This document shows, in pieces, positions 1 to 15,074 of a stretch of 64,000 bases of DNA. Both the position numbers and the translations under genes were made by a program. How positions within the stretch are numbered: position 1 is the stretch's first letter; each line of letters opens with the position of its first letter. The notes beneath the pieces are model-generated. The model made no database searches. It had not been told where the DNA came from and was given only the letters and a program-made list of their open reading frames with translations. Source of the stretch: Chitinophaga pinensis (lineage in GTDB: Bacteria; Bacteroidota; Bacteroidia; UBA4408); assembly GCA_945861665.1 (NCBI GenBank), contig CAMAVS010000011.1, positions 1 through 64,000 on the forward strand, read 5' to 3'.

Positions 1-181
1 TATTTTCCAATTCTTTAATTCTTGATTTTAATTGTTTTACTGTCCAATTTTGAATTATAATCAAACTGAAAAGTCCAATTGACAAAATTAGGCTACCATA
101 AGATAAATGCATCACTTTCATAATAGCACCTATCATAACAATTAAAGTACCTAATCCTAATAATATATCTTCTTTTTTCAT
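1..181 (-). CDS. Small membrane protein, C-terminally truncated by window edge
   Basis: Read by eye: minus-strand ATG at 181 gives MKKEDILLGLGTLIVMIGAIMKVMHLSYGSLILSIGLFSLIIIQNWTVKQLKSRIKELEN..., open to the window start; hydrophobic segments then a charged coiled tail. Confidence 0.6.
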   Translation of the reverse strand, partial: MKKEDILLGLGTLIVMIGAIMKVMHLSYGSLILSIGLFSLIIIQNWTVKQLKSRIKELEN

Positions 182-237
182 ATTGTTTACTTATTTAATT
201 TTCAATTATTTAATGAGTATGGACTTCCATAATGGCA

Positions 238-367
238 TATAACGTTTTCGGGCTTGGCGAAGGTGGCGATTTTTACCACAAATATTGATGCGGAGAACCA
301 ATGTTTGATTAACCACAAATGTGTCTGCGGAGCACTGAACCGCCACTTTTGCCAAACCCGTGTTATA
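238..367 (-). repeat. attC-like foldable element E1 at the 3' end of the restriction-like unit
   Basis: TATAAC...GTTATA termini; imperfect inverted repeat CGGGCTTGGCGAAGGTGGC / GCCACTTTTGCCAAACCCG; about 94% identical to 10327-10456. Confidence 0.75.
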
Positions 368-514
368 GCCAGTGGTTCTTGTCCACCGTCCTTGCAAACC
401 ATTGTCAGTATTGAGTTTCTGTGTCATTGTGTGTCAGCTGTGCGTTGCGTTTTTTATTTTTTTGAAGCGTTAGAAATTTTTAAAAACAATTTTTCTTTTG
501 GGTTGGAAGGGTGA

Positions 515-570
515 AAGCTCTTTTACAATTTTTGGTTAAGCGTTGGTTTGTGCGAATTGTAAATGTGCTT
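515..570. repeat. Hairpin D, TCTT/ATGT internal-loop family
   Basis: AAGC-TCTT-TTACAATT ... AATTGTAA-ATGT-GCTT; right arm overlaps the stop codon of the 569-1297 CDS. Confidence 0.7.
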
Positions 571-1297
571 AAACCTGTGCGTTGATTTTTTGATAATGTT
601 TATTTACAATTTTAAACCAGTCTTTAAATGTCATGCTTTTATATTTGCCTTTGTAAAATTGAGTGCAAACTTCAACTGCCTCTAAAACTTTATTTTTTTT
701 CAGTAGTGGTTTTATTTCAAGAATTAGGGATTTGTCAGTAATGTCAAGCAGTCTATCAGTAATATATTCTGTCAAAGGTTCGCTTACAATGTTTGTTTTT
801 TCATCTTCATTTTCCCCTCTTACTTCTTTAAAAAGAGCTGGGATGTTGTCAAAGAAACTTGTCAAACTAACTCGTTTAAAAATGATAATTTTTTCGCCAT
901 TTGATAGATAACCAGACTTAAATTCATTCGGTTTAACTTTTGTTTGTAATGATTCACGTGAGTATAAAGAAACATTACTCTTTGCGTTCAATCGCTGTTT
1001 AACGTGCTTTGGATTCCAGCAAACCACAGTGTCGTTGTCAACATCATATCCTAGTATGATAAAAGGTATATCTGCTTTAAATATTTTTGAGAAGTGGTCG
1101 CTGTATGGTAACTGAACACGTGTAACATCAGGTGAGTTTTTAAAATATGCAGGTGATAGATTTTTTAGAAATATGAAAAATCGTTTTGTTCCTATTTTAA
1201 TTAGAAATGGATTCCCGTCTTCGTAACTAAAATTCACCAAATCACTCAAGGTTTCAATAAATTTTATCTTTAGTTCTTTTGCTAATATTTTTCTCAT
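569..1297 (-). CDS. Uncharacterised protein, last gene of the restriction-like operon
   Basis: 242-aa ORF 8 bp after the DUF4420 gene; resembles restriction-associated N-terminal domains (...FIFLKNLSPAYF..TRVQLP..IPFIILGYD...VVCWNPKHVKQRLNAKSNVSLYSRES...). Confidence 0.6.
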   Translation of the reverse strand: MRKILAKELKIKFIETLSDLVNFSYEDGNPFLIKIGTKRFFIFLKNLSPAYFKNSPDVTRVQLPYSDHFSKIFKADIPFIILGYDVDNDTVVCWNPKHVKQRLNAKSNVSLYSRESLQTKVKPNEFKSGYLSNGEKIIIFKRVSLTSFFDNIPALFKEVRGENEDEKTNIVSEPLTEYITDRLLDITDKSLILEIKPLLKKNKVLEAVEVCTQFYKGKYKSMTFKDWFKIVNKHYQKINAQV

Positions 1298-1305
1298 ATC
1301 AATAA

Positions 1306-2292
1306 TTACATTTTGAAAAGTGAACTATGAAGAAGCGATTTATTCTTACAAGATTTCACGTCTAGAATATCTGTTAGGTCACAATCAAATCTAACGTTTG
1401 TTATTTGTGTCGGAATACTTACAGAATTAATTGTAGGAACAATTTCACTGTAATAGTATTTTATAGAATCAACAGCAAGTTGATAGTCATAGAATACATC
1501 AAATGATTTCTCAAAATCTTTCCCTAAAGTTTGAGCAATTATTTCATTTATGCGAAAACACAATTCTTTATCCTTTATCCTTGTTTCGATTAATTCAATC
1601 AATCCAAAAATATTTTTGCCAACTCCAGTTTCTACAGCAAAAATAGATGCAATAATTAAATTTGAATTTTCATTTGGATTAAGTTGTTCAATTGAAAAGT
1701 TATGAATTCTTCTGCTTTTTGAAGTGCTTTTTATTTCTAACTTGTCTGAACCATCATTAAAATCAAATTTATCACTTTTAGAGCTATGCCATGCTTGAAT
1801 TAAATAATCGGGGTTTCTTGATTGTTCAATTACTAAAAGTTCAGCCCACAAGCCCTGTATAGTTTTAACTGGTGGATTTGAGAATTTGCTAAACAAGTTT
1901 ATAAGTGTATCCACTTCAATTTTCAAATCTTTTAGCAGAGGTTTATCCGATAGCTTTTTTATAATTAGATAAACTATTTCTAAAAAATATTCTTGTAATT
2001 CAATGGAGTCGGTTTTTAGCGAAATTATACTGTATACATCTTCCTCAATTTTATTTTTAGCGGTTTTCAGTAGGCACTTTCGGTTGAATTGAACTGATAT
2101 AAATTCAAGGTTGCTGTCTATTGATTTCACATTTGCTGAATCTGCACATTTAATAAAAAACATTGGTTGCTCGTTTTGAGAAATACCAATCTTATGATTT
2201 TTGATTAATGGCAACGAACCAACTTTAAAACTGTCGCCATTAACTGACGATTGTTTTTTAAGTTCTAGGAATATTTTAAAAATTGAGTCCAT
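1306..2292 (-). CDS. DUF4420-type PD-(D/E)XK motif protein
   Basis: KFDFNDGSDKLEIKSTSKSRRIH matches a PD-(D/E)XK core; more likely start MDSIFKIF at 2292 (TAA-A-ATG junction with the Z1 gene) rather than 2325. Confidence 0.8.
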   Translation of the reverse strand: MDSIFKIFLELKKQSSVNGDSFKVGSLPLIKNHKIGISQNEQPMFFIKCADSANVKSIDSNLEFISVQFNRKCLLKTAKNKIEEDVYSIISLKTDSIELQEYFLEIVYLIIKKLSDKPLLKDLKIEVDTLINLFSKFSNPPVKTIQGLWAELLVIEQSRNPDYLIQAWHSSKSDKFDFNDGSDKLEIKSTSKSRRIHNFSIEQLNPNENSNLIIASIFAVETGVGKNIFGLIELIETRIKDKELCFRINEIIAQTLGKDFEKSFDVFYDYQLAVDSIKYYYSEIVPTINSVSIPTQITNVRFDCDLTDILDVKSCKNKSLLHSSLFKM

Positions 2293-2293
2293 T

Positions 2294-4465
2294 TTACTTT
2301 TTGATACCAACAAATGAATGAGCAAAATCTTCGGGGTAATAAATACCTAAAGTGTATAATACTTGACCGCCCCATTTAACAGAAAGTGTATCACCTTTGA
2401 TTCTTATTTTATGAATTTGTATACAAAGCGAATCCTCAAACTTGATTCCCTTATCTCCAGGATATACTTCAAACCCTTTTGGGTCTGGACCTGAAAAAAT
2501 ATTGTTTATCTTCAAATTTCCTTTGTCATCTATCAAACTTCTATTTCTACCTTCTGCTACGCCAAAACTCATTTCAAACACGTAGGCTTCTTTTATACCT
2601 TTATTGTCAGCTAAGTATCTTAAATACTGAATAGTTGAGGATTTACGCAAAGCATCAGGCATATTGGCTATTTTGAAATCCTTTAAAAATTCGATTACTT
2701 TTCTTATTTCAAGTTTTACATATCTATGATTTCGGTCGTTTGTTCTATAATCTTTGAAATTTTTAAATGATTGTGAATTCAGAAATTCAGAAACAAAAGA
2801 ATAGTTTTCTTGAATGTGTTGCAAAGCATTTAATTGCCTCCAACCGTTCATTTTTTGTTTTATCAATTCCGATGATAAAATGTTATTTCTCGTTGGATTC
2901 ATTGCACTACTTAAAACTAACAACTGCTCAAGTTGTGCAAGTGTATTTTCTTTCAGCATAGTTCGCATGATTTCCTCATGCTCTACATACTCTCTATATT
3001 CAATAATAGAATCATTTGGAAGAAAAACTCTACAACTTTCAAGATAGTTTAGTTTGTAACCAAAAAACCTACATCGTTGTTGTATTGTGTCTGCATTTGA
3101 TTTGCCTATGCTATATCGAGGCATATATGAAACAGACAATCCTTCTACTGTATAGCCTCTATTTAGCATGTCAGCACCAACTAAAATATGAGATGATGCG
3201 TTGCTCCAATCAATTTCTCTTGAACCTTGTATTACCAGTTCCATGTTTGTATCAAGTATTGCTTGCAATACTTCTTGAATCACTAAATCAAAACTTGGAG
3301 GATTGTCAATTCTTCTAACTGCTTCAATATAATTTTCTTTAAATTCTTTCACTAGCTCAATTTTACTTGGGTCAGTATCAGTTAGATTTAGCCTTTCCGC
3401 CCAAACCCCAATTAGTTTTTTAACCCAATCATAAAATTGCTTACTTGCATCTTGCTCCCTATCTGCATGAATCATCATCGAAAGAAAATTTTCTTTCCCT
3501 TCGATGTTCACAGTAATTGCAACACCCATTAAAAACAATTGTAAAGCATCTATTAAACTTTGAGGACATTCTGCAAGTTGATTATGTTTATGATGATATA
3601 CTTCTGTATCAGGAATTGTAATTATTAGGTCTGTGTTATCCTCAAAAAATGTTTTACCACCAGTGTAAGACTTCCCAGGAGTTAATACCACATGAAATTT
3701 TGGGGAAAGTAAATCCATAATGTTTATCAATAATGGACCTTGAGGTGTTGCCGTATATTGAATATATGAATGATTTGAAAGCGATGCTCTTAAATTAAGA
3801 ATACTTGAATATGTCGAACTAAATTCATCATCTTCCCAATCTTCTGTTTTGCTATTCTTTCTTGCATAAGTATTTAAACTTGCTTGGTCAGCTTCATCAT
3901 CAATTATTAAAACACCATTGTTTCCTAATTCTTCACTTACTTCAGCTGTTTTGAATATTTTGGTTAGTTCTTCAATGTGCTTGTAATGCTTTAATACAGT
4001 TATCAGAATAGCTGGCTTATGATTTAACCTTAATGCACTTTGGATTTTACCATGAACATTATCAATAACGGATGGGCTTTGGTAAACTTTAAAAAATCTT
4101 GCATTGTCGCCATCTGTATGAAGGTCTTTTTTCAAACGTTTTGTCGTTTGCTCTAGCAAATTCACCTTTATTCCTGCAAAATAAATTACAATGCGGAAAC
4201 CATTGTCAAGAGCTAATGCAGTTAATGTTGTAAATGACATTGTCTTACCACTTTGAACATACCCAATAGCAATACCTGTTGTACTACCGATTGTGTTTAC
4301 AGGGTTAACGCATTGCGAAAGAATTTCTGTTGTTTCATTTATCAGATTATCTCTTTCGTCAGAATCCAGTTTTGTTAAACGGCTTATCAAATCTCTTGTT
4401 CTCGAACCTTCTGCAATTTGAAAGTTTGAAACAGTGGGTTGGATTATTCTAATTGTTTCACTCAT
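2294..4465 (-). CDS. Z1 domain-containing ATPase/helicase-like protein
   Basis: Walker A GYVQSGKT, Walker B VLIIDDEAD, YTATPQ, HILVGADMLNRGYTVEGL motifs of the Z1 family. Confidence 0.9.
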   Translation of the reverse strand: MSETIRIIQPTVSNFQIAEGSRTRDLISRLTKLDSDERDNLINETTEILSQCVNPVNTIGSTTGIAIGYVQSGKTMSFTTLTALALDNGFRIVIYFAGIKVNLLEQTTKRLKKDLHTDGDNARFFKVYQSPSVIDNVHGKIQSALRLNHKPAILITVLKHYKHIEELTKIFKTAEVSEELGNNGVLIIDDEADQASLNTYARKNSKTEDWEDDEFSSTYSSILNLRASLSNHSYIQYTATPQGPLLINIMDLLSPKFHVVLTPGKSYTGGKTFFEDNTDLIITIPDTEVYHHKHNQLAECPQSLIDALQLFLMGVAITVNIEGKENFLSMMIHADREQDASKQFYDWVKKLIGVWAERLNLTDTDPSKIELVKEFKENYIEAVRRIDNPPSFDLVIQEVLQAILDTNMELVIQGSREIDWSNASSHILVGADMLNRGYTVEGLSVSYMPRYSIGKSNADTIQQRCRFFGYKLNYLESCRVFLPNDSIIEYREYVEHEEIMRTMLKENTLAQLEQLLVLSSAMNPTRNNILSSELIKQKMNGWRQLNALQHIQENYSFVSEFLNSQSFKNFKDYRTNDRNHRYVKLEIRKVIEFLKDFKIANMPDALRKSSTIQYLRYLADNKGIKEAYVFEMSFGVAEGRNRSLIDDKGNLKINNIFSGPDPKGFEVYPGDKGIKFEDSLCIQIHKIRIKGDTLSVKWGGQVLYTLGIYYPEDFAHSFVGIKK

Positions 4466-4468
4466 AGC

Positions 4469-6004
4469 TTAAATATTTCTTAGAAAATGATTAAAATTAA
4501 TTCTAACATTTCCAGCATGTTTGGTGCCTTGTGAAGGTGACTTTAATTCTGCTAAAACTAACGAACGAATGATAGAAATAATGGGCTGATAATCTTGCTC
4601 CTTTTTGAATTGCTCAAAACGCATAAAAAATGGATGGGCAAGATTTATTTTGTAGAGTATTTTTTTAGTAAATAATTCATCATCTTCTTGCTCCATAGAA
4701 TAGAGTATAGGCAAATTGGGCTCGGTAATAAGTTCTAATTTAAGTTTAAACTTTTCATTATCAAAATCAAAAAAATCCTCATACGAATCAATTGCCACAG
4801 ATTTTTTTAATATTCTTTCATTTTGCGTTGCTATTTCTTTACTAACGATTTCTTTGAGTGATGTTTCGACATTTTCTTTTAAATTAGATTCTTTTGTTAG
4901 CTTTCTTAAATTATTTATAATTTTTTTTGCAACCTGTTTATTATTCTCTTGTGTCTTTGGTTTTATATATTTTTCTGCCTGTGTGTACAGATCAAAATTC
5001 TTGAAAGAAATTTCTGATTGTAAAGCTTCCATTAGAGCATCCAAATCTTCCTGCTCTTGAAAACTGCCTTTATTGAAACTTACCGAAAATCCTTCTAATT
5101 CTAACTCACCAAAAATCCTTTTGTGTCTTGGAGAGCCGACTTGTCCACAAAGGACTTTTGGTTTATACTTTTCATCGTGACTCCCCTCAATAACTCTTCC
5201 TCTTCGAAATAACGACAATCCATTCACTTCACTTGTACTCATTGTATTTAAAATCCCAATGAAGCCATTTACCTTATAAATTCCTGAAGAGAAATTTATT
5301 TCTTTTTTCCAAAGAATTGATTTACCGTTTGGGTTATTATAGACAGGCGCATTTAAAATTTCCGGCTCGTCATAAACTAATTCTTCATTATTAATAAACA
5401 ACTTCATTTCTCCTTTTCTAATAAACTTCCGATATATGCTTGCTAAATGCTTCTTGATTTTATCTAATTGGTGATTTGAGGGTGCGTTTTTGGTAAGTTT
5501 TGAAAGAGTCAAAACTGTATAATGCTCATTAACATCAACTGTTTTACTTTTTATTGGCAATTCTTCTAGCTTATTTTCCTTTACATCCTTTAAATCAAAA
5601 TTGACAAATCTTTCAATATTTTCTCCTAGAGCCTTTGTTCTTAAACTCCAGGATTTTGATAGCCAATTTGAAGAAGTCTTTAAACCCATTCCAAACTCAT
5701 TTAATCCGCTAACATCTGAATGTGTATTTGCTACTTCTAGGGCACGTACAATATTTACAGAATCTATTCCAGCTGCATTATCTGAAATTATAATCAGATC
5801 GTTCTCTTTATCAAGAGTAATTCGAACTTCTAACGTATATTTTCCGTGATGCGTTTTTTTAAGCAAAGATTTATTGCTGTGATAACTTTGCCAAGCATTA
5901 TCAACGTACTCACCAATAACATTCCAAATTTTATTGCTAAAATTTTCAAATTGCCCATAAAAATCGGGTTTGAATTTGATAGATACTTTATTAATTTTTT
6001 CCAT
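4469..6004 (-). CDS. GHKL (MORC/MutL-like) ATPase
   Basis: GEYVDNAWQS, ISDNAAGID, NEFGMGLKTSS motifs of the HSP90-like ATPase fold; next to Z1 and C5 methyltransferase. Confidence 0.85.
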   Translation of the reverse strand: MEKINKVSIKFKPDFYGQFENFSNKIWNVIGEYVDNAWQSYHSNKSLLKKTHHGKYTLEVRITLDKENDLIIISDNAAGIDSVNIVRALEVANTHSDVSGLNEFGMGLKTSSNWLSKSWSLRTKALGENIERFVNFDLKDVKENKLEELPIKSKTVDVNEHYTVLTLSKLTKNAPSNHQLDKIKKHLASIYRKFIRKGEMKLFINNEELVYDEPEILNAPVYNNPNGKSILWKKEINFSSGIYKVNGFIGILNTMSTSEVNGLSLFRRGRVIEGSHDEKYKPKVLCGQVGSPRHKRIFGELELEGFSVSFNKGSFQEQEDLDALMEALQSEISFKNFDLYTQAEKYIKPKTQENNKQVAKKIINNLRKLTKESNLKENVETSLKEIVSKEIATQNERILKKSVAIDSYEDFFDFDNEKFKLKLELITEPNLPILYSMEQEDDELFTKKILYKINLAHPFFMRFEQFKKEQDYQPIISIIRSLVLAELKSPSQGTKHAGNVRINFNHFLRNI

Positions 6005-6011
6005 TATAATT

Positions 6012-7316
6012 CTATTTCAGTAAATTTTTAGCTATATTTTTTACAACACAAACATTTACAGCATTTCCAAATGCACGGAAGGCCTTTGCCGTAGTGCTTG
6101 GCAATTCTTTGAGTTCCTCCATACACTGTAGTTTTGAAGCCTCTCTTGGCGTCATATATCTGCCGAGCCAAGGAAAAATTGGAATTTGAGTTGATGTTAA
6201 AACTAAGGCAGGAGAAAAATCAGGTATCTTTACTCTAATACCCGAAGGCCTAAATTGTAAAATCTTGTCATTAATTACCAAAGGGATTTTATTACCACAA
6301 TTCCATTCAAATTTTTGGTGACTGTTTTCAAAATCAAGAATTTTTGGAATCCAATTGTCTAGCCATTTTTTATGTTTCAAATAAAATTCTCTGTTAGCTC
6401 TGATGTAATATTTTTTCCAGTGAGGAAATTCTTTCTGGTCAATCTGAGAATAGATTGGCAAGCATTCAAGCACTTCATCAAAGGAATGTCCTTTGATTTT
6501 TTTACCGAACTTTCCTTTGTGTTTTTTTAATTCATCTATTGAAAGTTTGATTGGGGCTTTATTTTCGTAAGGATAAGTTGCTCCAAACTCCATTGCCCAA
6601 ATTGGAAATCTCGGCACTTCTTCGCTTTTAAGATTGTCTAAAAACTCTTGCCAAACTTTAAGGTGATTTAAAGAATCGGGTTTTATTCCAGTATATTCTT
6701 TTGGTTTTTTTTCAATAATTGATTTTATTGAAAGTGTTCCTTTAAAATCACCTTCTGGCAATTCATAATTTTTTAAACCTCCTTTAGATTTTAATCGGCA
6801 CACAATGTATATTCTTGAACGATGTTGAGGAACACCGAACTTATGAGGTGAAATAACTTTTTCCTTTACTTCATATTTTATAGAAAGTTTATCAAAAATA
6901 TACTGCCAAGTGTTACCCTCGTCATGCCCTTTGAGATTTGGAACATTTTCTAAAAAAATGAACTCGGGTTTGTGTAAATCTGCAATTTCCATTATACGAT
7001 TAAAGAAGTTTCCATTATTTAAATCCTCTAGCCCGTTTTGTTTACCAGCTTTAGAAAATGGTTGACAAGGAAACCCAGCACATATTATGTCGTGTTTAGG
7101 AATGTCTTTAACTTCTACAGCATTTATATCTCCAGTACACTGGATACCATGATTAATTTTATATAACTTCCTTAGGTCATCATTTATCTCACTTGCAAAA
7201 ACACATTTGTGGCCTAAACTATGCAATGCAATATGGAAACCACCAAGACCTGCGAATAAATCTATAAATGTTAGGCTTCTTTCTTTTTTAATTTCCATTT
7301 CTCTTTTTCTGCTCAC
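6012..7316 (-). CDS. dcm: DNA (cytosine-5-)-methyltransferase
   Basis: FIDLFAGLGGFH, GFPCQPFSKAG, FLENVPN, RAFGNAVNVCVV motifs. Confidence 0.95.
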   Translation of the reverse strand: MSRKREMEIKKERSLTFIDLFAGLGGFHIALHSLGHKCVFASEINDDLRKLYKINHGIQCTGDINAVEVKDIPKHDIICAGFPCQPFSKAGKQNGLEDLNNGNFFNRIMEIADLHKPEFIFLENVPNLKGHDEGNTWQYIFDKLSIKYEVKEKVISPHKFGVPQHRSRIYIVCRLKSKGGLKNYELPEGDFKGTLSIKSIIEKKPKEYTGIKPDSLNHLKVWQEFLDNLKSEEVPRFPIWAMEFGATYPYENKAPIKLSIDELKKHKGKFGKKIKGHSFDEVLECLPIYSQIDQKEFPHWKKYYIRANREFYLKHKKWLDNWIPKILDFENSHQKFEWNCGNKIPLVINDKILQFRPSGIRVKIPDFSPALVLTSTQIPIFPWLGRYMTPREASKLQCMEELKELPSTTAKAFRAFGNAVNVCVVKNIAKNLLK

Positions 7317-7352
7317 TTTTATTTTCTTGTATTGATAAAACTATTTTGTGAT

Positions 7353-7592
7353 TCATCTTTCTATTACCTTAAATTCATAATCCAAAAAAATTGAAAACCG
7401 AACTAAGTAATCAACTGTAATTCCAAATTTTCCATTTTCAATTTTTGAAATGGTAGAACGGTTTATGTCCATTTTTTCTGCCAGCTGTTCTTGGCTGTAT
7501 CCTCTTTTCTCACGAACAATTCTAATCTTGTCACCAAGTTTTAGTCGGTAATCTTTAATTTGTTCTTCTGTTGCTGATAATTCTGCTTTCAT
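7353..7592 (-). CDS. XRE-family helix-turn-helix regulator (controller-like)
   Basis: REKRGYSQEQLAEKMDINRSTISKIENGKFGITVDYLVRF. Confidence 0.9.
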   Translation of the reverse strand: MKAELSATEEQIKDYRLKLGDKIRIVREKRGYSQEQLAEKMDINRSTISKIENGKFGITVDYLVRFSIFLDYEFKVIER

Positions 7593-7603
7593 AGAATTGC
7601 TTG

Positions 7604-8002
7604 TTAATTCACAAAAAGAGTTCCTGTGTGTTCTTTACCGTTTTCGTCTTCAATTGTCAGATAAACATTTGTTTCAACTCCTTTAACCCCTTTGGTCAAG
7701 TCAAGCATAATTTTCTGTTCACTTACTTTTACAACTTTTCCAGTTGCTTGTGAATAGTCCGCTTTGTTGATAGTTACATTGTGTCCAACAAGGTCAGCAG
7801 TGTCAACCTCTACAACTTCGAGGTCGTCTAATTTTACTGTGTTAATGGGAGGGAAGGAAAGTCCTGTATTTAATGCTTTGATGTCAGCCCTTGGTCTTTC
7901 ATCGTCTTCGATAATTTCTAAAACAACGTAAAGTTGGTTGGGGTTTTCGTCTGGTAGCGGTGTATGAAACTTTGCTACTTGTCCAATTTTGTTTGGTCTC
8001 AT
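7604..8002 (-). CDS. Uncharacterised 132-aa protein, first gene of the restriction-like operon
   Basis: Intact ORF 11 bp upstream of the HTH gene, same strand; no recognised motif. Confidence 0.65.
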   Translation of the reverse strand: MRPNKIGQVAKFHTPLPDENPNQLYVVLEIIEDDERPRADIKALNTGLSFPPINTVKLDDLEVVEVDTADLVGHNVTINKADYSQATGKVVKVSEQKIMLDLTKGVKGVETNVYLTIEDENGKEHTGTLFVN

Positions 8003-8161
8003 TTGTCTATGTGCAGAATTTATAGCGTTGCCCCCGCTGTTAAATTATTTAGTGCGTCAAAGATATAAATTTCACTTTTAAAAGGTGCAATATATTGAAC
8101 ATATTTTTCAACATGTTATTCTTGTCAAGTTTATTATCGTTATAGGTGCGTTGGCTAAAAA

Positions 8162-8224
8162 GTGGCTCTTTTGGTTTTGCCGAAGGGCTTGCTTTGTGTG
8201 TCGGGGCAAAACCAAATGTGCCAC
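8162..8224. repeat. Hairpin A, TCTT/ATGT internal-loop family
   Basis: GTGGC-TCTT-TTGGTTTTGCC ... GGCAAAACCAA-ATGT-GCCAC, 5+11 bp perfect stems. Confidence 0.8.
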
Positions 8225-8431
8225 TTGTGCGGCTGGCTAAAATTGTTTTTAAAGAAGTGCGGTGGGAAAAAAAATAAAAAACATTGGGTCGGCTTGAGTG
8301 TCGGAGTACTCGCTTTCCAATTTCAATATGGTCTGTATGTTTTTGGTCACCTGTCAAAATGGTTTGTCTTTGTTTTAATGTTTAAATTTTAGTCGGTTTG
8401 TCGTCTTTGGAACGGTCGTCCTACCATTGGC

Positions 8432-8507
8432 TATAACGGTTTGCGTGTAGGCGATGTTGCCTTGTGTTGCGCCTGCGGCAAGGCAATATTGCTTACACGC
8501 TGTTATG
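8432..8507 (-). repeat. attC-like foldable element E2 at the 3' end of the DUF262 unit
   Basis: TATAACGGTTTGCGTGTAGGCGATGTTGCCTTG ... CAAGGCAATATTGCTTACACGCTGTTATG; near-complete stem, loop TGTTGCGCCTGCGG. Confidence 0.8.
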
Positions 8508-10331
8508 TGATGTGGTTCTTGTCAATTCTGTCTTATCAATTGATTTTCCTTTAAATAATTTATGAATTGGTTTGTAATTTCTTCTGTTCTTTTTGTTATA
8601 TCCTGTTCTGTAAAATCAGTATTATTTGAAGCTAAATTTACAAGCTCTGATATAATTGTACCTGTTTTTTGTTGTCCTTTGTCATTGGTAAATCCTTCAT
8701 AATACTTTATTTTATCAATAAAACGGTAATCAGCCGCTCTAATATTTATTTTATCCTCTAATAGTACTTTATTACCTAAGGCCTCTAAATTTTTAGTGTT
8801 TACTAAAGTTTTGTCGTTCTCTTGACGCTTTCGAGCAAAAATATGTTCAATATCAAAATTTGTGTTTATTGTTGGGATGATTTGAATGTCATTATTAAAT
8901 GCCCACCAAGTTAACATTGATCTTGTTATTGGTCTTCCATTCTTAAATTCAAAGTTATTTATTGCAATCCTTAATGTATTTTCTTCAAATTTATGTTCAT
9001 CAAAATTCACTTCTTTATCCGTAACTACATTAATCATCTCTGCATATACAGGTGTTCGTAGTGCATTTACACCTGGATTGATAAAAGAAAATCCCCAAAC
9101 AAAACCTATTATTTTATTTAAAAAATCATCAAGTTTATTTTCTTCTAATTGGTCACTCCCATTTTTGTTATGTAAAAAATACACTGATAAAAAATAAGTC
9201 CACATTCCATTTGGAGCGTAATTTAAAATAAATAACTTTCTTAAAATGTTCGGTTGAAATCGTTCGGAATTTTGATTGTAAATATCATTCCAAAAATCTA
9301 CTAATATTTTAAGATTAGTTAAAGTTTCATCTTGTTTAAGGATTGCATATTTTCCTTTTTCATAAAATTTACGAAGTGCTTCTGTTGTACTAGATTTAAT
9401 TCCTTGTTTTGATCGTATAAAATACATATACCTAGTGAATAGCTCATCCATCGGAATTCCATTTAAAGGTCTAAAAATCTTTCCCGAGATTTCTTCAAGT
9501 TCTTTCCATTTTTCAATAAAATCATCTTTTTGATTTTTTGTACTGTAATACTTGTAAAACTGTGCTTTGAAAATATCGGCATCTGATAATGGCAGTCCTC
9601 TATTATTTAAAGTTGAAAAAATTCTTAAAGCCGTATCTTGAGATTCTGCTTCAATAGGCAAAAGAATACAGTTCCCAAGAATTCTAGCAGGTAAGTATGC
9701 AAAGTAAGACGGGAACTCACTCAAAAAATCATCAATTTTTTGTTGAAAAAATATGTAATTTCTCGCATAATTACTTTTTTGATCTTTACTTACAAAACCC
9801 GTTTTCAAAATATCAAGGAATTCATCTTTGTCATTATCGGTAGCTACTTCTGAATCTATTTTTAGTACATTGAGATCTGCTTTGCCAAATTCATCCGTTT
9901 TCCATAAACATTGTGCAATTCTATCACGTGTGCTTTTAGAATTGTCATCTTGCATATTATTAAATTTTGCATAAAATGCTCGTAATAACAACATTAAAGT
10001 TGTCAAACGTTGCTGTCCATCAATTACTTCTTTTTTATTATTTTCATTTTCAAAAGTTACTATCGAACCTAAAAAGTATTCTTCGTTTTTTTCAAATTTT
10101 TCGTAATTGTTATCAGGAAAAGCAAATGCAAAAATGTCGTCCCAAAGCGTTTGGCACTGGCTTTCTTCCCAAGCATAAGGTCTTTGATAATCTGGTATTA
10201 GAAAATCCGATTTCTTGTCGGAAAAAAGCAACATGATAGTTTTTTGGTCAACATTAAGTTTAGACATATTTTTTAATTTTTATTTAATGGTCAAATTTTT
10301 ACTGTGAGTTTCGTTATACCATAACACATAA
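8437..10331 (-). mobile_element. Putative integron-like cassette 2 (DUF262/DUF1524 gene, about 1.9 kb)
   Basis: Begins (minus) GTTATGTG at 10332 and its terminal element E2 begins with the reverse complement CACATAAC (+ strand GTTATGTG 8502-8509). Confidence 0.55.
8522..10267 (-). CDS. DUF262 and DUF1524 (HNH) GmrSD-like protein
   Basis: IPDYQRPYAWE, VIDGQQRLTTLMLLL (DUF262) and FDIEHIFARKRQ (DUF1524 HNH-like). Confidence 0.9.
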   Translation of the reverse strand: MSKLNVDQKTIMLLFSDKKSDFLIPDYQRPYAWEESQCQTLWDDIFAFAFPDNNYEKFEKNEEYFLGSIVTFENENNKKEVIDGQQRLTTLMLLLRAFYAKFNNMQDDNSKSTRDRIAQCLWKTDEFGKADLNVLKIDSEVATDNDKDEFLDILKTGFVSKDQKSNYARNYIFFQQKIDDFLSEFPSYFAYLPARILGNCILLPIEAESQDTALRIFSTLNNRGLPLSDADIFKAQFYKYYSTKNQKDDFIEKWKELEEISGKIFRPLNGIPMDELFTRYMYFIRSKQGIKSSTTEALRKFYEKGKYAILKQDETLTNLKILVDFWNDIYNQNSERFQPNILRKLFILNYAPNGMWTYFLSVYFLHNKNGSDQLEENKLDDFLNKIIGFVWGFSFINPGVNALRTPVYAEMINVVTDKEVNFDEHKFEENTLRIAINNFEFKNGRPITRSMLTWWAFNNDIQIIPTINTNFDIEHIFARKRQENDKTLVNTKNLEALGNKVLLEDKINIRAADYRFIDKIKYYEGFTNDKGQQKTGTIISELVNLASNNTDFTEQDITKRTEEITNQFINYLKENQLIRQN

Positions 10332-10456
10332 CGGTTTCGGGCTTGGCGAAGGTGGCAATTTTTACCACAAATGTTGATGCGGAGAACCAAACTTTGATTA
10401 ACCACAAATGTGTCTGCGGAGCACTGAGCCGCCACTTTTGCCAAACCCGTGTTATG
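10327..10456 (-). repeat. attC-like foldable element E3 at the 3' end of the Zorya unit
   Basis: CATAAC...GTTATG termini; about 94% identical to E1 over 130 bp (roughly 8 differences by eye). Confidence 0.75.
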
Positions 10457-10517
10457 CGTTCGCCCTTCTTTCTCGGTCATTGTTTGTGTGTCCATTGTCG
10501 TGTTGTTGTGCGTTGGC

Positions 10518-10582
10518 TTGGTAGCTCTTTTGCATTTTTTTGTTTGGCTCTTGCGTTGGCAAAAATGCAAATGTGCTACCAA
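10518..10582. repeat. Hairpin B, TCTT/ATGT internal-loop family
   Basis: TTGGTAGC-TCTT-TTGCATTTTT ... AAAAATGCAA-ATGT-GCTACCAA, 8+10 bp perfect stems, about 10 nt past the zorE stop. Confidence 0.8.
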
Positions 10583-10592
10583 ATGCGTTGGC

Positions 10593-11414
10593 TTATATGT
10601 CGTCAATATATTCGTTTCCAAGTTCAATAAGTTTAGTTCTGTATTTGTCAAGAAACCGTTTAATTCGTTTTCGCATTCCTGGTTTTGAAAAGTTTGCTTT
10701 ATGCACATCGTCTTTTTGACTATGGCACAAAATGCAAAGACATTGTAAGTTGTTTCTACGCATATTAGCAAGCTCCCAAGCAACAATGTGGTCTGTGTGA
10801 ATAAACTCTCTGTCTTTGCGGCTTTCCAGCATATCTCCACCAAAACCACAATTTTCGCAAGTGTAGTTTTGTTCCTGTCTATATTCTTTGCTGATTTTAT
10901 CCCAATCTAGCGGTCTATTAAACATATCAAGTTCTATGTCCCTTGTTGTGTCTTCAATCTCTTGCTGGTCAAGTAAACTAAAAAAGCCTTCTGTGTCGTT
11001 ATAATTTTCAATGTCAGATTGCTGTTGGCATCTTGAACAAAGTTCAATAGATACTTGGTCGAACTTTGCTCCTGTTTGAGCATCAGTTAGGTCAACAAGA
11101 TTTGAGTTGTGCCAATAGTAACGATTTTCAAATTTTCCTTTAGCTCTTTGTTCTTGAATTGTTTCGCAATTGGTAATATGAAATTTTGGGAACTTGTTTC
11201 CGTAATTCACAATAAAGGGTTGCTTGATATACATATAGCCTTTGTATTCTTTACCGTCAATTGTCAAATAAATTCCGTCATCTCTAAAGTCAATGTTGCC
11301 TGCTCGTTCCTCTTGAGTTAAGTCACGCCTGATTACACGAAATCCACTTTCTGTGGCTTCGGGAAATCCAAGCTGTGTCAGCCGTTGTGCAAGATTATCA
11401 AAAGTGTAGAGCAT
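10593..11414 (-). CDS. zorE: HNH endonuclease, ZorE-like (type II Zorya effector)
   Basis: CENCGFGGD...EFIHTDHIVAWELANMRRNNLQCLCILCHSQKDD HNH/zinc motif; TAATG overlap with the upstream zorB-like gene. Confidence 0.75.
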   Translation of the reverse strand: MLYTFDNLAQRLTQLGFPEATESGFRVIRRDLTQEERAGNIDFRDDGIYLTIDGKEYKGYMYIKQPFIVNYGNKFPKFHITNCETIQEQRAKGKFENRYYWHNSNLVDLTDAQTGAKFDQVSIELCSRCQQQSDIENYNDTEGFFSLLDQQEIEDTTRDIELDMFNRPLDWDKISKEYRQEQNYTCENCGFGGDMLESRKDREFIHTDHIVAWELANMRRNNLQCLCILCHSQKDDVHKANFSKPGMRKRIKRFLDKYRTKLIELGNEYIDDI

Positions 11415-12145
11415 TATTTATTTTGCATTTGTTGAATTACCTTTTCTACTAAAAGTTCGCTTGTTGTCACAATTCTAAATTCCACTCGTCTTGAATATTC
11501 AAAGTTTATATCCTTTCCTGTTTTGTAACTGTATTTTTTTTCATTATCCAATGTTCTGCCATAAGAAAGTCCAGTTGCAGTAACACTAAATCTAATCCAT
11601 TTTTTATCTGTGGCAGGAAGTTGATTATAATATGTGCTTCGTATTATATTGTCCATCACAGACAAGGAACGGTCTTGAGACAATTGAAGATTTTCAATGT
11701 AACCAACGTTTTCGTTTTGATAACCAGTTGGAGTTCTTGCCGAAGGGTCTGAATGTCCTTCTATTCTAATTTCAGCAATTTTGTTTTGGTATTTTGCTTG
11801 CCTTAGAACATTAAAATATTTTGGAATAAACTCATTTAATATTTGCTCAAACAAAGGTCGAATGTTGGCTTTGTCTGGTTCAAACAAAACATTTGGATTA
11901 GTAAATCTAATTGACAAATCTTGGTCAAGTGCTAAATTCCATCGCTGAAAATCATTCTTGAATGTTTCTTTAAGTTCGTTGTATAGATTTTCTTTTGTCT
12001 GTTTGTATTCTTCAAATATTTTATCTTGCTGTTGCTGTTTGTATTGAACAAGTCCCATATATGCTAGTGAAATAAATAAGAAGATAACCATCAAAACGGT
12101 CATCAAATCTGCATAGGGTATCCAAAAACTATCTTTCTTACTCAT
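11414..12145 (-). CDS. zorB: ZorB-like MotB/OmpA-domain protein
   Basis: N-terminal FWIPYADLMTVLMVIFLFISLAY membrane helix with MotB-type Asp; IEGHSDPSA...LSQDRSLSVM OmpA C-like domain. Confidence 0.85.
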   Translation of the reverse strand: MSKKDSFWIPYADLMTVLMVIFLFISLAYMGLVQYKQQQQDKIFEEYKQTKENLYNELKETFKNDFQRWNLALDQDLSIRFTNPNVLFEPDKANIRPLFEQILNEFIPKYFNVLRQAKYQNKIAEIRIEGHSDPSARTPTGYQNENVGYIENLQLSQDRSLSVMDNIIRSTYYNQLPATDKKWIRFSVTATGLSYGRTLDNEKKYSYKTGKDINFEYSRRVEFRIVTTSELLVEKVIQQMQNK

Positions 12146-13596
12146 TACTTGCGGTTAGTTGGGACAAATCTTTGAATACACTGGTCAAGGTTCGCAAGAG
12201 TATCATTTAACCTCTCGTAGAATTCAGAGTTTATATTTTCCAAATCTCCACCTAATCGGGTGCTTGTTTCCTTTACAATAGAAACTGCTTTATTCATTTC
12301 CTTACGATATTTATCCCAAACATCACCGTTGAAATCTCTGAACTCTTCTAACTTGGTAATAAGAATTTGTGCGGCTTCCTTAAAGTTCTTTTCTGTCTTA
12401 ACCCATTCGTTTAGTTTTGATGTTGTTTCATCAAAACTTTCTGTTGTGCTTTCAAGCGTTTCAATCGTCTTGGTAAGTTTGTTTGTTATCTCTTGAAACT
12501 TACCGTCTTCAATCATTACACGCTTTAGCTCGGCAACCAGTTGACTCAACTTGCTATCATCGTCTGTAAGTGATTTTGTATTGTCTGCAACTTGTTGCAG
12601 CGTTGTCGCTGAAATGGTAAACATTTCAGTTGTCTTTTGAAACTGCTCTGTGAGTTTTTGAACTTGTTCCTTGTTTTGCTTTTGCCAGTCATTCAAACTT
12701 TTTACGCTGTTATTCAACTCTGCAAAATTTTCTTTTACTAATCGGTTTATCAATTCACTCATTTGCTCATTGAATTGTTCCGTTGCCTTTTTCATTACTT
12801 CAACAAGTGCTTCTGTATTGTTCTTGCGAAGCAATTCAGAAAACTCATCAAATTTCTTTGAAGTGAGTTTGTTGTTCTCACTCATTGCTTTTATTATTTC
12901 ATCGGTATTCTTGTTGGCTTTCTCTGATGTTGCTTTTTGTTCTTCTCTTAAATTTTTGAATTGTTCTGTCAATTCAATTCTACTGTTGTTTGATGTTGTG
13001 TTTATTTGAGTTAGTCCTTCTGTCGTTGTTTTTTGATTTTCGTTTGCTGTTTTTTGAAGATTGATTACTTCCTTTTCAAGAGTTGAAAGTTTTGAAGAAA
13101 CTTTAGTTTCTAAATCTGTTCCGAATGATTTAATAAGCTTTTCAATCTGTTTCTGATTGTCATTCTTTAATTCTTTTACTTCAAATGTCAGTGCTGCAAT
13201 TGCAGAAAGTTCGTCTGTTTGCTTTACTGGTCTGTTTGGGTCATCGTCAATTTGCTTCTGAATGATTGCGTTTATTTTTTGAAAAACGATTAGCCCAATA
13301 ATTCCTGCCATTGTCGCAAAGAAAGCAAGTCGCAAGCCTTGTAAAAGAGTAGGAAGGCTTTCTTGTATTTTTTCTGTGTCAAACCCAGAAAGTCCAAATG
13401 TTATACCTAAAGCGGTGCAAAAGATACCAAGTGTTGGAAACACAGGCGGAATACTTTCAAAGATGTAGCTATTGTTCCAAAAACTTTTTTTGTCTGCCGT
13501 TGCGGTAGTCTGGTAATGCTTGAATTTCCAAATGAATATAATGCTGAAAACTGTCCACAGTCCAAAAATTATTGTCGCTATTAATAGTTCGTTCAT
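12145..13596 (-). CDS. zorA: ZorA-like MotA-type membrane protein with long coiled-coil tail
   Basis: N-terminal helices, FPTLGIFCTALGITFGLSGF, FFATMAGIIGLIVFQKI, then about 350 aa coiled coil. Confidence 0.85.
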   Translation of the reverse strand: MNELLIATIIFGLWTVFSIIFIWKFKHYQTTATADKKSFWNNSYIFESIPPVFPTLGIFCTALGITFGLSGFDTEKIQESLPTLLQGLRLAFFATMAGIIGLIVFQKINAIIQKQIDDDPNRPVKQTDELSAIAALTFEVKELKNDNQKQIEKLIKSFGTDLETKVSSKLSTLEKEVINLQKTANENQKTTTEGLTQINTTSNNSRIELTEQFKNLREEQKATSEKANKNTDEIIKAMSENNKLTSKKFDEFSELLRKNNTEALVEVMKKATEQFNEQMSELINRLVKENFAELNNSVKSLNDWQKQNKEQVQKLTEQFQKTTEMFTISATTLQQVADNTKSLTDDDSKLSQLVAELKRVMIEDGKFQEITNKLTKTIETLESTTESFDETTSKLNEWVKTEKNFKEAAQILITKLEEFRDFNGDVWDKYRKEMNKAVSIVKETSTRLGGDLENINSEFYERLNDTLANLDQCIQRFVPTNRK

Positions 13597-13634
13597 ATGT
13601 CAGTGTCTGTTTGTGATTGTTGTGGTGCGGTCGG

Positions 13635-13700
13635 GCAAAAGCAAATGTGGTGCAACTGTGTTTCGGCTTGTGGGTGGCGTTGCATCTCTTTTGATTTTGC
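13635..13700. repeat. Hairpin C, TCTT/ATGT internal-loop family with permuted strand order
   Basis: GCAAAAgCAA-ATGT-GgTGCAAC ... GTTGCAtC-TCTT-TTGaTTTTGC upstream of zorA. Confidence 0.65.
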
Positions 13701-13802
13701 TGAAGCGTTGGCTTTTCTGTTCATTTTTTTGTCGTTTAATGTTAGCGCTGTCGGTCGCCATAGGGTGACGCATAACTCATTTATAGGGGAAGTTTTTCTT
13801 CT

Positions 13803-13851
13803 AAAAACTTCCTCAATATCTCCAATTTGGACGTATTGAGGAAGTTTTTTT
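13803..13851 (-). terminator. Rho-independent terminator downstream of the ElaA-like gene (works on either strand)
   Basis: AAAAACTTCCTCAATA ... TATTGAGGAAGTTTTTTT, 16-bp perfect stem with T tract. Confidence 0.8.
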
Positions 13852-13895
13852 GTTTATTTGTTTCCCTTTATGTTTATATTGTTTCCTGTTTAATT

Positions 13896-14351
13896 CTAAA
13901 GTTTAACCCCCGAAAACAGCATTTGTATATGCGGAATATCGTCTTCAAAATATTCATCTCCCTGGCATACAAAACCAAAGTCTTCGTAAAATTTAATCAA
14001 GTAACATTGTGCTGATATGCATACCGCAACTTCCCCCCATTTTTCTTTTATAAATAACATTGTTTTACTCATTAATTCTTTACCAATACCGAGGTTTCGT
14101 GCCTTACTTGTGGTTAATACACGCCCAATAGAAATTTCATTATAGGAAACCCCCGGAGGCAGTATTCTGGCGTATGCAACCAATTCGTTTTTATCATTGT
14201 GTGCTTGTAGGTGGTAGGCTTTCAAATCTTTTCCATCGGCATCCTGGTAATGGCAGTTTTGTTCCATTACAAAAGTGGAAATGCGTACTGTAAATATATC
14301 GTACAGCTCTGTTGTGCTAAGTTCTTTAAAATGTTTAATGCTCCAGTACAC
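13896..14351 (-). CDS. GNAT N-acetyltransferase, ElaA-like
   Basis: ISIGRVLTTSKARNLGIGKELM acetyl-CoA motif; RISTFVMEQNCHYQDADGKD typical of ElaA. Confidence 0.85.
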   Translation of the reverse strand: MYWSIKHFKELSTTELYDIFTVRISTFVMEQNCHYQDADGKDLKAYHLQAHNDKNELVAYARILPPGVSYNEISIGRVLTTSKARNLGIGKELMSKTMLFIKEKWGEVAVCISAQCYLIKFYEDFGFVCQGDEYFEDDIPHIQMLFSGVKL

Positions 14352-14406
14352 TCTTTGATTTTAAAATTTAGTATGTTACTTGCTTAACACAAAGGTATTC
14401 AACTTT

Positions 14407-14632
14407 TTATATAAAAAAAGTCAGTATTGCACCTAAGGAATTGACTATAAAGTCATACACATCGGCACTGCGCTTCTTAAAAATTATCCCTTTGAATGAG
14501 CTCCAGTGTCTCTACCATAAACAATAGTAACAAGTGTAAAAATAAATATAAAATAGGGTGATGTACACCTATTTATTGAAACTGAGCATTTCTAAAAATG
14601 AAATATGCGGAATACCCGACAGGATATTCCGC
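14407..14632 (-). pseudogene. Degraded VanZ-like protein gene
   Basis: Minus-strand fragments IPHISFLEMLSFNK* and, after stops/frame disruption, KKRSADVYDFIVNSLGAILTFFI*, matching VanZ N- and C-terminal signatures. Confidence 0.6.
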
Positions 14633-14693
14633 ATACAACAATAATAATAAGTGCCCACAAAAATGCGGGAACAAAATACTTTTTAAAGTAAAA

Positions 14694-15074
14694 TTAGTGT
14701 CCTGTTAATTCCTTGTAAGTCCCAGCCGACAGCAATGCACTTACTTCTGCTGCATTTGTCAACTCAATTTTAATCATCCAGCCATCACCGTAAGGGTCGT
14801 TGTTTACTTTATCGGGATTGCCTTCCAGGCCCTTGTTAACTTCCACCACTTTACCAGATACAGGCATAAAAAGGTCCGAAACAGTTTTTACCGCCTCAAC
14901 GGTACCAAAAATTTCTTCGTGAGCAAGAGTTTCGCCTTCGGTCTCTATTTCAACATACACAATATCACCTAATTCGCTTTGTGCAAATTCAGTAATTCCT
15001 ACAGTTGCAATGTTACCGTCTATTTTTATCCACTCGTGGTCTTTTGTGTATTTTAAATTTTCAGGAAAATTCAT
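14694..15074 (-). CDS. gcvH: Glycine cleavage system H protein
   Basis: [53 protein letters not shown] lipoyl-lysine motif. Confidence 0.97.

What the first reader, a model, noticed from the sequence alone, without database searches (positions are those of the whole stretch)
569..8002. Seven-gene C5-methyltransferase/MORC/Z1/DUF4420 system with non-canonical ends
Seen: 132-aa unknown, XRE HTH, C5 MTase, GHKL ATPase, Z1, PD-(D/E)XK DUF4420, 242-aa unknown, nearly gapless on one strand. Established: MORC/MutL-Z1-REase-methylase restriction systems were predicted by comparative genomics, and Mza-type systems (MutL, Z1, DUF4420, AIPR) are antiphage. Inference: this is a variant in which the AIPR position is taken by a 242-aa protein and an extra 132-aa protein leads the operon.
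Basis: partly seen in the sequence, partly recalled or inferred. Interest (0 to 1): 0.62.

Follow-up and report, generated by a model that had tools for sequence, protein, structure and literature searches.

The report
Restriction operon in an integron-like cassette array
The seven genes form an ordinary-looking but rarely described bacterial DNA-restriction system of a kind predicted in 2008; the unexpected part is that it, and the defence genes beside it, sit as swappable cassettes in what looks like a little-recognised Bacteroidota relative of integrons, the platforms that gather and reshuffle genes.

Summary
In detail: seven intact minus-strand ORFs at the stated places. The core (C5-methyltransferase, GHKL ATPase, Z1 helicase, PD-(D/E)XK DUF4420) is the dcm-MORC-Z1-nuclease restriction-modification class predicted by Iyer 2008, not an Mza derivative. 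Its GHKL protein has the MORC signature, Mza models score far below cut-off, and the same four-gene order recurs in two other Bacteroidota and in Rathayibacter. The 'unknown' 242-aa protein is Pfam MTaX1 (PF20296). Elsewhere MTaX1 is fused to HNH or DUF262 nucleases beside other methylases, so it is probably the DNA-reading module. The 132-aa protein has no family, but with the XRE gene it also leads unrelated defence operons, one Mza-like, so it looks like a portable control module. Outside the given coordinates, each defence operon here is followed by a ~130-nt attC-like hairpin (14 of 21 pairs with compensatory changes). These hairpins form same-orientation arrays downstream of a XerA-like recombinase that lacks the IntI insertion; 43 of 43 sites around 13 recombinase homologues obey this rule. 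The operon is best read as one ~8-kb cassette of an integron-like array. Activity of the restriction system and of the recombinase is untested.

The parts
7604..8002 (-). 132-aa leader protein (p132), no known family
   Evidence: homologues lead other defence operons
7353..7592 (-). XRE helix-turn-helix regulator (control-protein-like)
   Evidence: HTH_3 58.1 bits; PADLOC HTH_VI / Control_protein 46 / 43 bits
6012..7316 (-). C5-cytosine DNA methyltransferase
   Evidence: PF00145 214.7 bits; motifs DLFAGLGGFH, GFPCQPFS, ENV, QHRSR, GNAV
4469..6004 (-). GHKL ATPase of MORC type
   Evidence: HATPase_c_3 48.1 bits; MORC signature NGLSLFRRGRVIEG fits GhXhhpXXRhl of PMC2292703
2294..4465 (-). SF2 helicase with Z1 domain
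   Evidence: PF10593 117.3 bits; GKT, DDEAD, DTIQQRCRFFG
1306..2325 (-). PD-(D/E)XK nuclease, DUF4420
   Evidence: PF14390 103.8 bits; E-D-ExK residues conserved in all eight sequences aligned
569..1297 (-). 242-aa MTaX1 protein (MTaX1 at residues 38-149, plus ~90 C-terminal residues)
   Evidence: PF20296 70.7 bits, cut-off 25
232..370 (-). attC-like hairpin site that ends the operon's cassette
   Evidence: R1 152.6 bits; fold z = -4.4
8426..8510 (-). short attC-like site that ends the preceding (GmrSD) cassette
   Evidence: R1 46.1 bits, not used to build the model
10321..10459 (-). attC-like site that ends the Zorya cassette
   Evidence: R1 145.5 bits
8522..10267 (-). GmrSD/DUF262 gene, neighbouring cassette
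   Evidence: PF03235 141.7 bits
10593..11414 (-). ZorE-like HNH gene, Zorya cassette
   Evidence: PADLOC ZorE 245.2 bits
11414..12145 (-). ZorB position (OmpA-like ORF) of Zorya
   Evidence: ORF and position; not scanned against a library
12145..13596 (-). ZorA of type II Zorya
   Evidence: PADLOC ZorA2 502.5 bits

Best explanation
A restriction-modification operon of the dcm-MORC-Z1-DUF4420 class, carried as one gene cassette of an integron-like array. The C5 methyltransferase would mark host DNA. MTaX1 (inferred target reader) and the DUF4420 nuclease, driven by the Z1 translocase and the MORC clamp ATPase, would cut unmarked DNA. XRE plus the 132-aa protein would control expression and travel as a module. 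Shown: gene content, intact motifs, conserved core, MTaX1 fusions to nucleases, p132-XRE reuse, and attC-like sites in oriented arrays behind a tyrosine recombinase. Inferred: restriction activity, the role of each accessory protein, and that the recombinase moves the cassettes.
For: Domains and motifs. Same four-gene core and order in L034, L035 and Rathayibacter plasmid L017. MORC and Z1 signatures as defined in PMC2292703. Z1-containing N-proteins of CglI/NgoAVII power ATP-dependent cleavage in systems that also have a C5 methylase gene (PMC4267653). MTaX1 is fused to HNH_2 in L012 and L015 and to GmrSD_N in L013, each beside another methylase; it lies convergent with the core in L005, and an MTaX1-like DUF262 protein lies next to the Hymenobacter core in L016. 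p132-XRE also leads an Mza-like operon in L023 and a helicase/PD-(D/E)XK operon in L024, and p132 leads vsr-dcm-MvaI/BcnI in L027. Sites: 14 of 21 pairs doubly compensated, 0/500 shuffles as high; 21 sites in the own genome; 43/43 on the same strand and 3' of recombinase homologues; 52/54 follow a same-strand ORF and none lies inside a large ORF; recombinase presence and site presence associated, p = 7e-6.
Against: No activity data. No confident structure for MTaX1 (pLDDT 50) or p132 (pLDDT 35), so the DNA-reader and control roles are guesses from context. The bare core exists without MTaX1 or p132, so both may be optional. The recombinase lacks the IntI-specific insertion, which is described as essential for integron function (PMC8138268). 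Many genomes hold sites without a close recombinase homologue (73 of 130). No recombinase was seen on the window's own array fragment; the nearest known one is on contig C3.
Confidence: 0.72

Rival explanations
1. It is a divergent Mza anti-phage system in which AIPR (MzaE) was lost or replaced by the 242-aa protein.
For: Same domain set for MutL/GHKL, Z1 and DUF4420; weak matches to MzaB, MzaC and MzaD. An Mza-like operon with the same p132-XRE leader exists in L023.
Against: Scores far below cut-offs; MORC signature present here and absent in the Mza-like homologue; relatives of the core lack both AIPR and MTaX1.
Confidence: 0.1
2. The ~130-nt hairpins are ordinary dispersed repeats (REP/MITE-like elements or transcription terminators), and the operon is simply part of a normal defence island with no cassette mechanism.
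For: A few sites lie alone in the genome (C1, C2, C10); sites occur in genomes without a close recombinase homologue; the recombinase is not a canonical IntI.
Against: Uniform orientation, position mostly 5-200 nt after a same-strand stop codon, location only 3' of the recombinase, conserved TAAC...GTTA ends with covarying arms and no Rfam family are attC-like and not expected of REP elements.
Confidence: 0.2
3. A methylation-dependent (type IV-like) or regulatory MORC system: the methyltransferase marks DNA for a MORC-led response rather than protecting host DNA from cleavage.
For: Eukaryotic MORCs are proposed to act in response to methylation marks (PMC2292703); MTaX1 could be a reader of modification rather than of sequence.
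Against: The nuclease keeps its E-D-ExK site, and MTaX1 fused to HNH beside an N6/N4 methylase with an XRE gene upstream (L012) looks like a classical type II restriction-modification layout.
Confidence: 0.08

Closest known systems
MORC-SFII(Z1)-RE-fold nuclease-cytosine methylase operons predicted by Iyer, Abhiman and Aravind 2008 (PMC2292703, third operon type)
   Same: C5 methylase, MORC with its diagnostic motif, SFII helicase with the C-terminal DThhQXuRhFG-type motif, E-D-ExK nuclease
   Different: Here with a p132-XRE leader and a separate MTaX1 protein, and framed as a cassette; the 2008 figure lists unexplained X1-X3 domains, but whether X1 equals Pfam MTaX1 was not verified
CglI / NgoAVII restriction-modification systems (PMC4267653)
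   Same: C5 methylase plus Z1 SF2 ATPase; this Z1 matches PADLOC Helicase_II at 166 bits, and tblastn finds a homologue in N. gonorrhoeae chromosomes (26% identity)
   Different: Their nuclease is PLD-B3; here it is DUF4420 plus MORC, with no PLD or B3 domain found
Mza anti-phage system
   Same: GHKL ATPase, Z1 helicase, DUF4420 nuclease order
   Different: No AIPR, no MzaB/C/D at cut-off, MORC rather than MzaB-type ATPase
Sedentary chromosomal integrons / CALINs
   Same: Same-orientation array of cassettes, each ending in a structurally conserved hairpin with TAAC...GTTA ends, next to a tyrosine recombinase
   Different: Recombinase is XerA-like with an N-terminal extension and lacks the IntI insertion; recombinase gene lies in the same direction as the cassettes; cassettes can be multi-gene operons of up to ~8 kb

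Membership tests
dcm-MORC-Z1-nuclease R-M class (Iyer 2008) | C5 cytosine methylase with intact motifs | tested here: met
dcm-MORC-Z1-nuclease R-M class (Iyer 2008) | GHKL ATPase with the MORC motif GhXhhpXXRhl | tested here: met
   GLSLFRRGRVI in the window protein; conserved in L005, L016, L017, L034, L035
dcm-MORC-Z1-nuclease R-M class (Iyer 2008) | SFII helicase with DThhQXuRhFG motif | tested here: met
   DTIQQRCRFFG, 9 of 11 positions by the letter (Q for h, C for u); DTLQQRARFFG in L034
dcm-MORC-Z1-nuclease R-M class (Iyer 2008) | RE-fold nuclease with E-D-ExK | tested here: met
   E in GLWAEL, D in KFDF, EIK; conserved in all homologues aligned
dcm-MORC-Z1-nuclease R-M class (Iyer 2008) | restriction and protective methylation activity | not testable with these tools
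   needs bench work
Mza | MzaB, MzaC and MzaD at equivalog cut-off | tested here: not met
   18.5/850, 120/1500, 25/420 bits
Mza | AIPR protein (MzaE) | tested here: not met
   no AIPR match among the seven proteins
CglI/NgoAVII R-M | PLD-B3 nuclease subunit | tested here: not met
   no such domain in the operon
CglI/NgoAVII R-M | Z1-containing SF2 ATPase | tested here: met
   Helicase_II 166 bits
MTaX1 (PF20296) | Pfam gathering score | tested here: met
   70.7 bits against 25
Integron | attC-like sites with conserved structure and ends, same orientation, after genes | tested here: met
Integron | IntI integrase with its specific insertion, at TIGR02249 cut-off | tested here: not met
   206 bits against 265, ~42 model positions missing; no insertion in 20 homologues
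Integron | attI site beside the integrase | not tested
   not examined
Integron | cassette excision and insertion | not testable with these tools
   needs a recombination assay

The most novel reading that the evidence does not exclude
Bacteroidia carry a distinct, widespread integron lineage. It has a XerA-like recombinase with its own N-terminal domain and without the IntI insertion, acting on ~130-nt attC-like hairpins. It stores complete multi-gene defence systems (a seven-gene MORC restriction system, Zorya, type I R-M, Mza-like) as single cassettes, some with their own portable p132-XRE control module.
Probability: 0.5. Interest if true: 0.85.

Novelty: new variant of a known kind. Interest (0 to 1): 0.62.

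Why it matters
The restriction operon itself extends a class that has been predicted since 2008; I know of no biochemical work on its MORC-containing form. It suggests what MTaX1 does (guide a nuclease) and names a candidate shared regulator, p132. The larger point is mobility. If the arrays are true integrons, Bacteroidia would have a common, so far little-recognised platform for collecting whole defence operons, although a 2022 survey reported just one complete integron in Bacteroidetes proper (Salinibacter ruber M1; PMC9024848). It would also mean that integron-type recombination does not need the IntI insertion.

Tried and rejected
Structure of MTaX1 from five close sequences: pLDDT 50, not used. 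Structure of p132 alone: pLDDT 35, not used. Sequence search of solved structures with MTaX1, p132 and Z1: no match. Viral-contig scans for p132 and for MTaX1-HNH: no relatives. Phage records for p132: none. Rfam on window 1-15000: no family. First idea that the site-adjacent recombinase is a canonical IntI: rejected because the insertion is missing. Chryseobacterium plasmid recombinase homologue: no sites found beside it, so the pairing is not universal. Paper searches for MTaX, DUF4420 or Bacteroidota integrons with defence cargo found nothing describing this; most subscription literature is not in that library.
Full report
What is in the sequence. Read from the promoter side they are: a 132-aa protein (p132), an XRE regulator, a C5 methyltransferase, a GHKL ATPase, a Z1 helicase, a DUF4420 PD-(D/E)XK protein and a 242-aa protein. 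Pfam confirms the named domains, and the catalytic motifs are present: DLFAGLGGFH/PCQ/ENV for the methylase, EYVDNA/DNAAGI/GMG for the ATPase, GKT and DDEAD for the helicase, and E-D-EIK for the nuclease. The 242-aa protein is a member of Pfam MTaX1, 'Methylase-associated X1' (70.7 bits, cut-off 25). p132 matches nothing significant in Pfam, PADLOC or NCBIfam.

What kind of system. Iyer et al. 2008 (PMC2292703) described MORC operons whose third type combines an SFII helicase with a C-terminal DThhQXuRhFG motif, a new RE-fold nuclease and, often, a cytosine methylase. The window's Z1 protein has DTIQQRCRFFG and its GHKL protein has GLSLFRRGRVI, matching the MORC-specific motif GhXhhpXXRhl. The same four genes in the same order occur in two other Bacteroidota genomes (L034, L035) and on a Rathayibacter plasmid (L017), without MTaX1 or p132. 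A Hymenobacter plasmid has the methylase, ATPase and Z1 genes, with a DUF262 protein carrying an MTaX1-like N-terminus convergent to them. The system is not Mza: MzaB, MzaC and MzaD models score 18.5, 120 and 25 bits against cut-offs of 850, 1500 and 420, Z1 is nearer to PADLOC Helicase_II, and the MORC motif is absent from the Mza-like ATPase in L023.

The 242-aa end gene. MTaX1 is rare: 5 of 396 genomes sampled from the phylum have it. In the other regions read it is the N-terminal part of proteins that end in an HNH nuclease (L012, L015) or a GmrSD domain (L013), next to an N6/N4 or Eco57I-type methylase. In L012 an XRE gene precedes methylase and MTaX1-HNH, the layout of a classical type II system. 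In L005 MTaX1 lies convergent to the rest of the operon. My inference is that MTaX1 reads DNA (sequence or methylation state) for a nuclease, and that in this operon it serves DUF4420 and Z1 as a separate chain. This is not shown; the structure model was too poor to use.

The 132-aa leader. p132 occurs in 5 of 395 genomes of the class including the window's own, two of these being fragments, and on one Spirosoma plasmid. In G540 a 95% identical p132 with its XRE gene leads C5 methylase, MzaB-, MzaC-, MzaD- and MzaE-like genes. In G564 p132-XRE leads a helicase/PD-(D/E)XK operon. On the Spirosoma plasmid p132 leads vsr, dcm and an MvaI/BcnI-type nuclease. About 340 bp upstream of p132 are also conserved between the window and G540 (80%). 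So p132-XRE behaves as a swappable front end, probably regulatory; this too is inference.

The surroundings. Beside the operon lie a GmrSD/DUF262 gene and a type II Zorya. A 128-nt inverted-repeat element follows the 3' end of the MTaX1 gene and that of ZorE at 86% identity; a shorter one follows GmrSD. Copies elsewhere in the genome follow a type I R-M operon on contig C6 and cassettes on C3, C8 and C13. Nine copies align with invariant TAAC-like and AACGTTA ends and covarying arms: 14 of 21 base pairs have double compensatory changes, 95.8% of cells pair, and no shuffle of 500 reaches these values. A covariance model finds 21 sites in the own genome at E < 1e-5. Most cluster at contig ends in uniform orientation, including the short GmrSD site that was not used in the model.

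An adjacent recombinase. On contig C3 the array begins right after a 384-aa tyrosine recombinase that passes the NCBIfam XerA/'integron integrase' model (233.9 bits, cut-off 220), falls short of the IntI model (206 against 265) and lacks about 42 positions of it. It is found at E <= 1e-70 in 102 of 295 genomes of the class. In 20 regions around homologues the model finds 43 sites in 13 regions; every one is on the recombinase's strand and on its 3' side. Of 54 sites with an upstream ORF, 52 follow one on the same strand, often by 5-20 nt, and none lies inside a large ORF. Sites occur in 132 of 198 genomes of the class. Genomes with the recombinase have them more often (59 of 68 against 73 of 130, p = 7e-6; this assumes the two samples are nested, which their shared handles suggest). 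These are the marks of an integron cassette array, except that the recombinase has no IntI insertion. PMC8138268 calls that insertion essential, and the 2022 survey PMC9024848 lists a single complete integron in Bacteroidetes proper, in Salinibacter ruber.

Cassette reading of the finding. The operon lies between the site at 8426-8510 and the site at 232-370, so it is one unit of about 8 kb; GmrSD is the next, Zorya the one after. The closest relative outside this genome, in a Ferruginibacter MAG (L002), is 88% identical in DNA over 3.2 kb up to the TAACA that opens the site and then differs completely. p132-led operons in G540 and G564 also have sites next to them.

Verdict. The operon is a new variant of a known, predicted restriction class. 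The finding's main interest is the integron-like setting, which makes a clear and cheap recombination test possible. None of the activities is demonstrated. The host is taken to be Bacteroidota from its SprA and T9SS genes and its named relatives; the genome itself is unnamed.

Noticed in passing
window 232-370, 8426-8510, 10321-10459 (all -); G000 contigs C3, C6, C8, C13: attC-like hairpin sites in same-orientation arrays after genes, apparently a Bacteroidota integron-like platform; 21 sites in this genome and sites in 132 of 198 genomes of the class.
   Followed up: partly
L048 4829-5983 (-) (G000:C3): 384-aa XerA-like tyrosine recombinase with a ~100-aa N-terminal extension at the head of the C3 array; homologues in other genomes often lie at contig ends.
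   Followed up: partly
window 10593-13596 (-): Type II Zorya (ZorA, ZorB position, ZorE) that itself looks like a cassette ending in an attC-like site.
   Followed up: partly
L046 3571-9947 (+) (G000:C6:151570-157946): Type I restriction operon hsdR-hsdM-hsdS framed by a short attC-like site upstream and a 128-nt one downstream.
   Followed up: partly
window 8140-8282 and L046 3744-3883: A ~140-nt sequence upstream of two different defence operons is 90% identical; possibly a shared promoter, leader or hairpin.
   Followed up: no
L048 1715-3682 (-): Schlafen group 3 helicase-domain protein as a cassette in the C3 array; could be another defence gene.
   Followed up: no
L003 439-6179: Relative of the operon (about 90% identical in C5 MTase, DUF4420 and MTaX1) in which the MORC gene is missing and Z1 is broken, a decayed or recombined copy.
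   Followed up: no
window 13771-13878 and L046 2203-2310: A 108-nt stretch with a strong palindrome (terminator-like) is 98% identical at two places in the genome.
   Followed up: no
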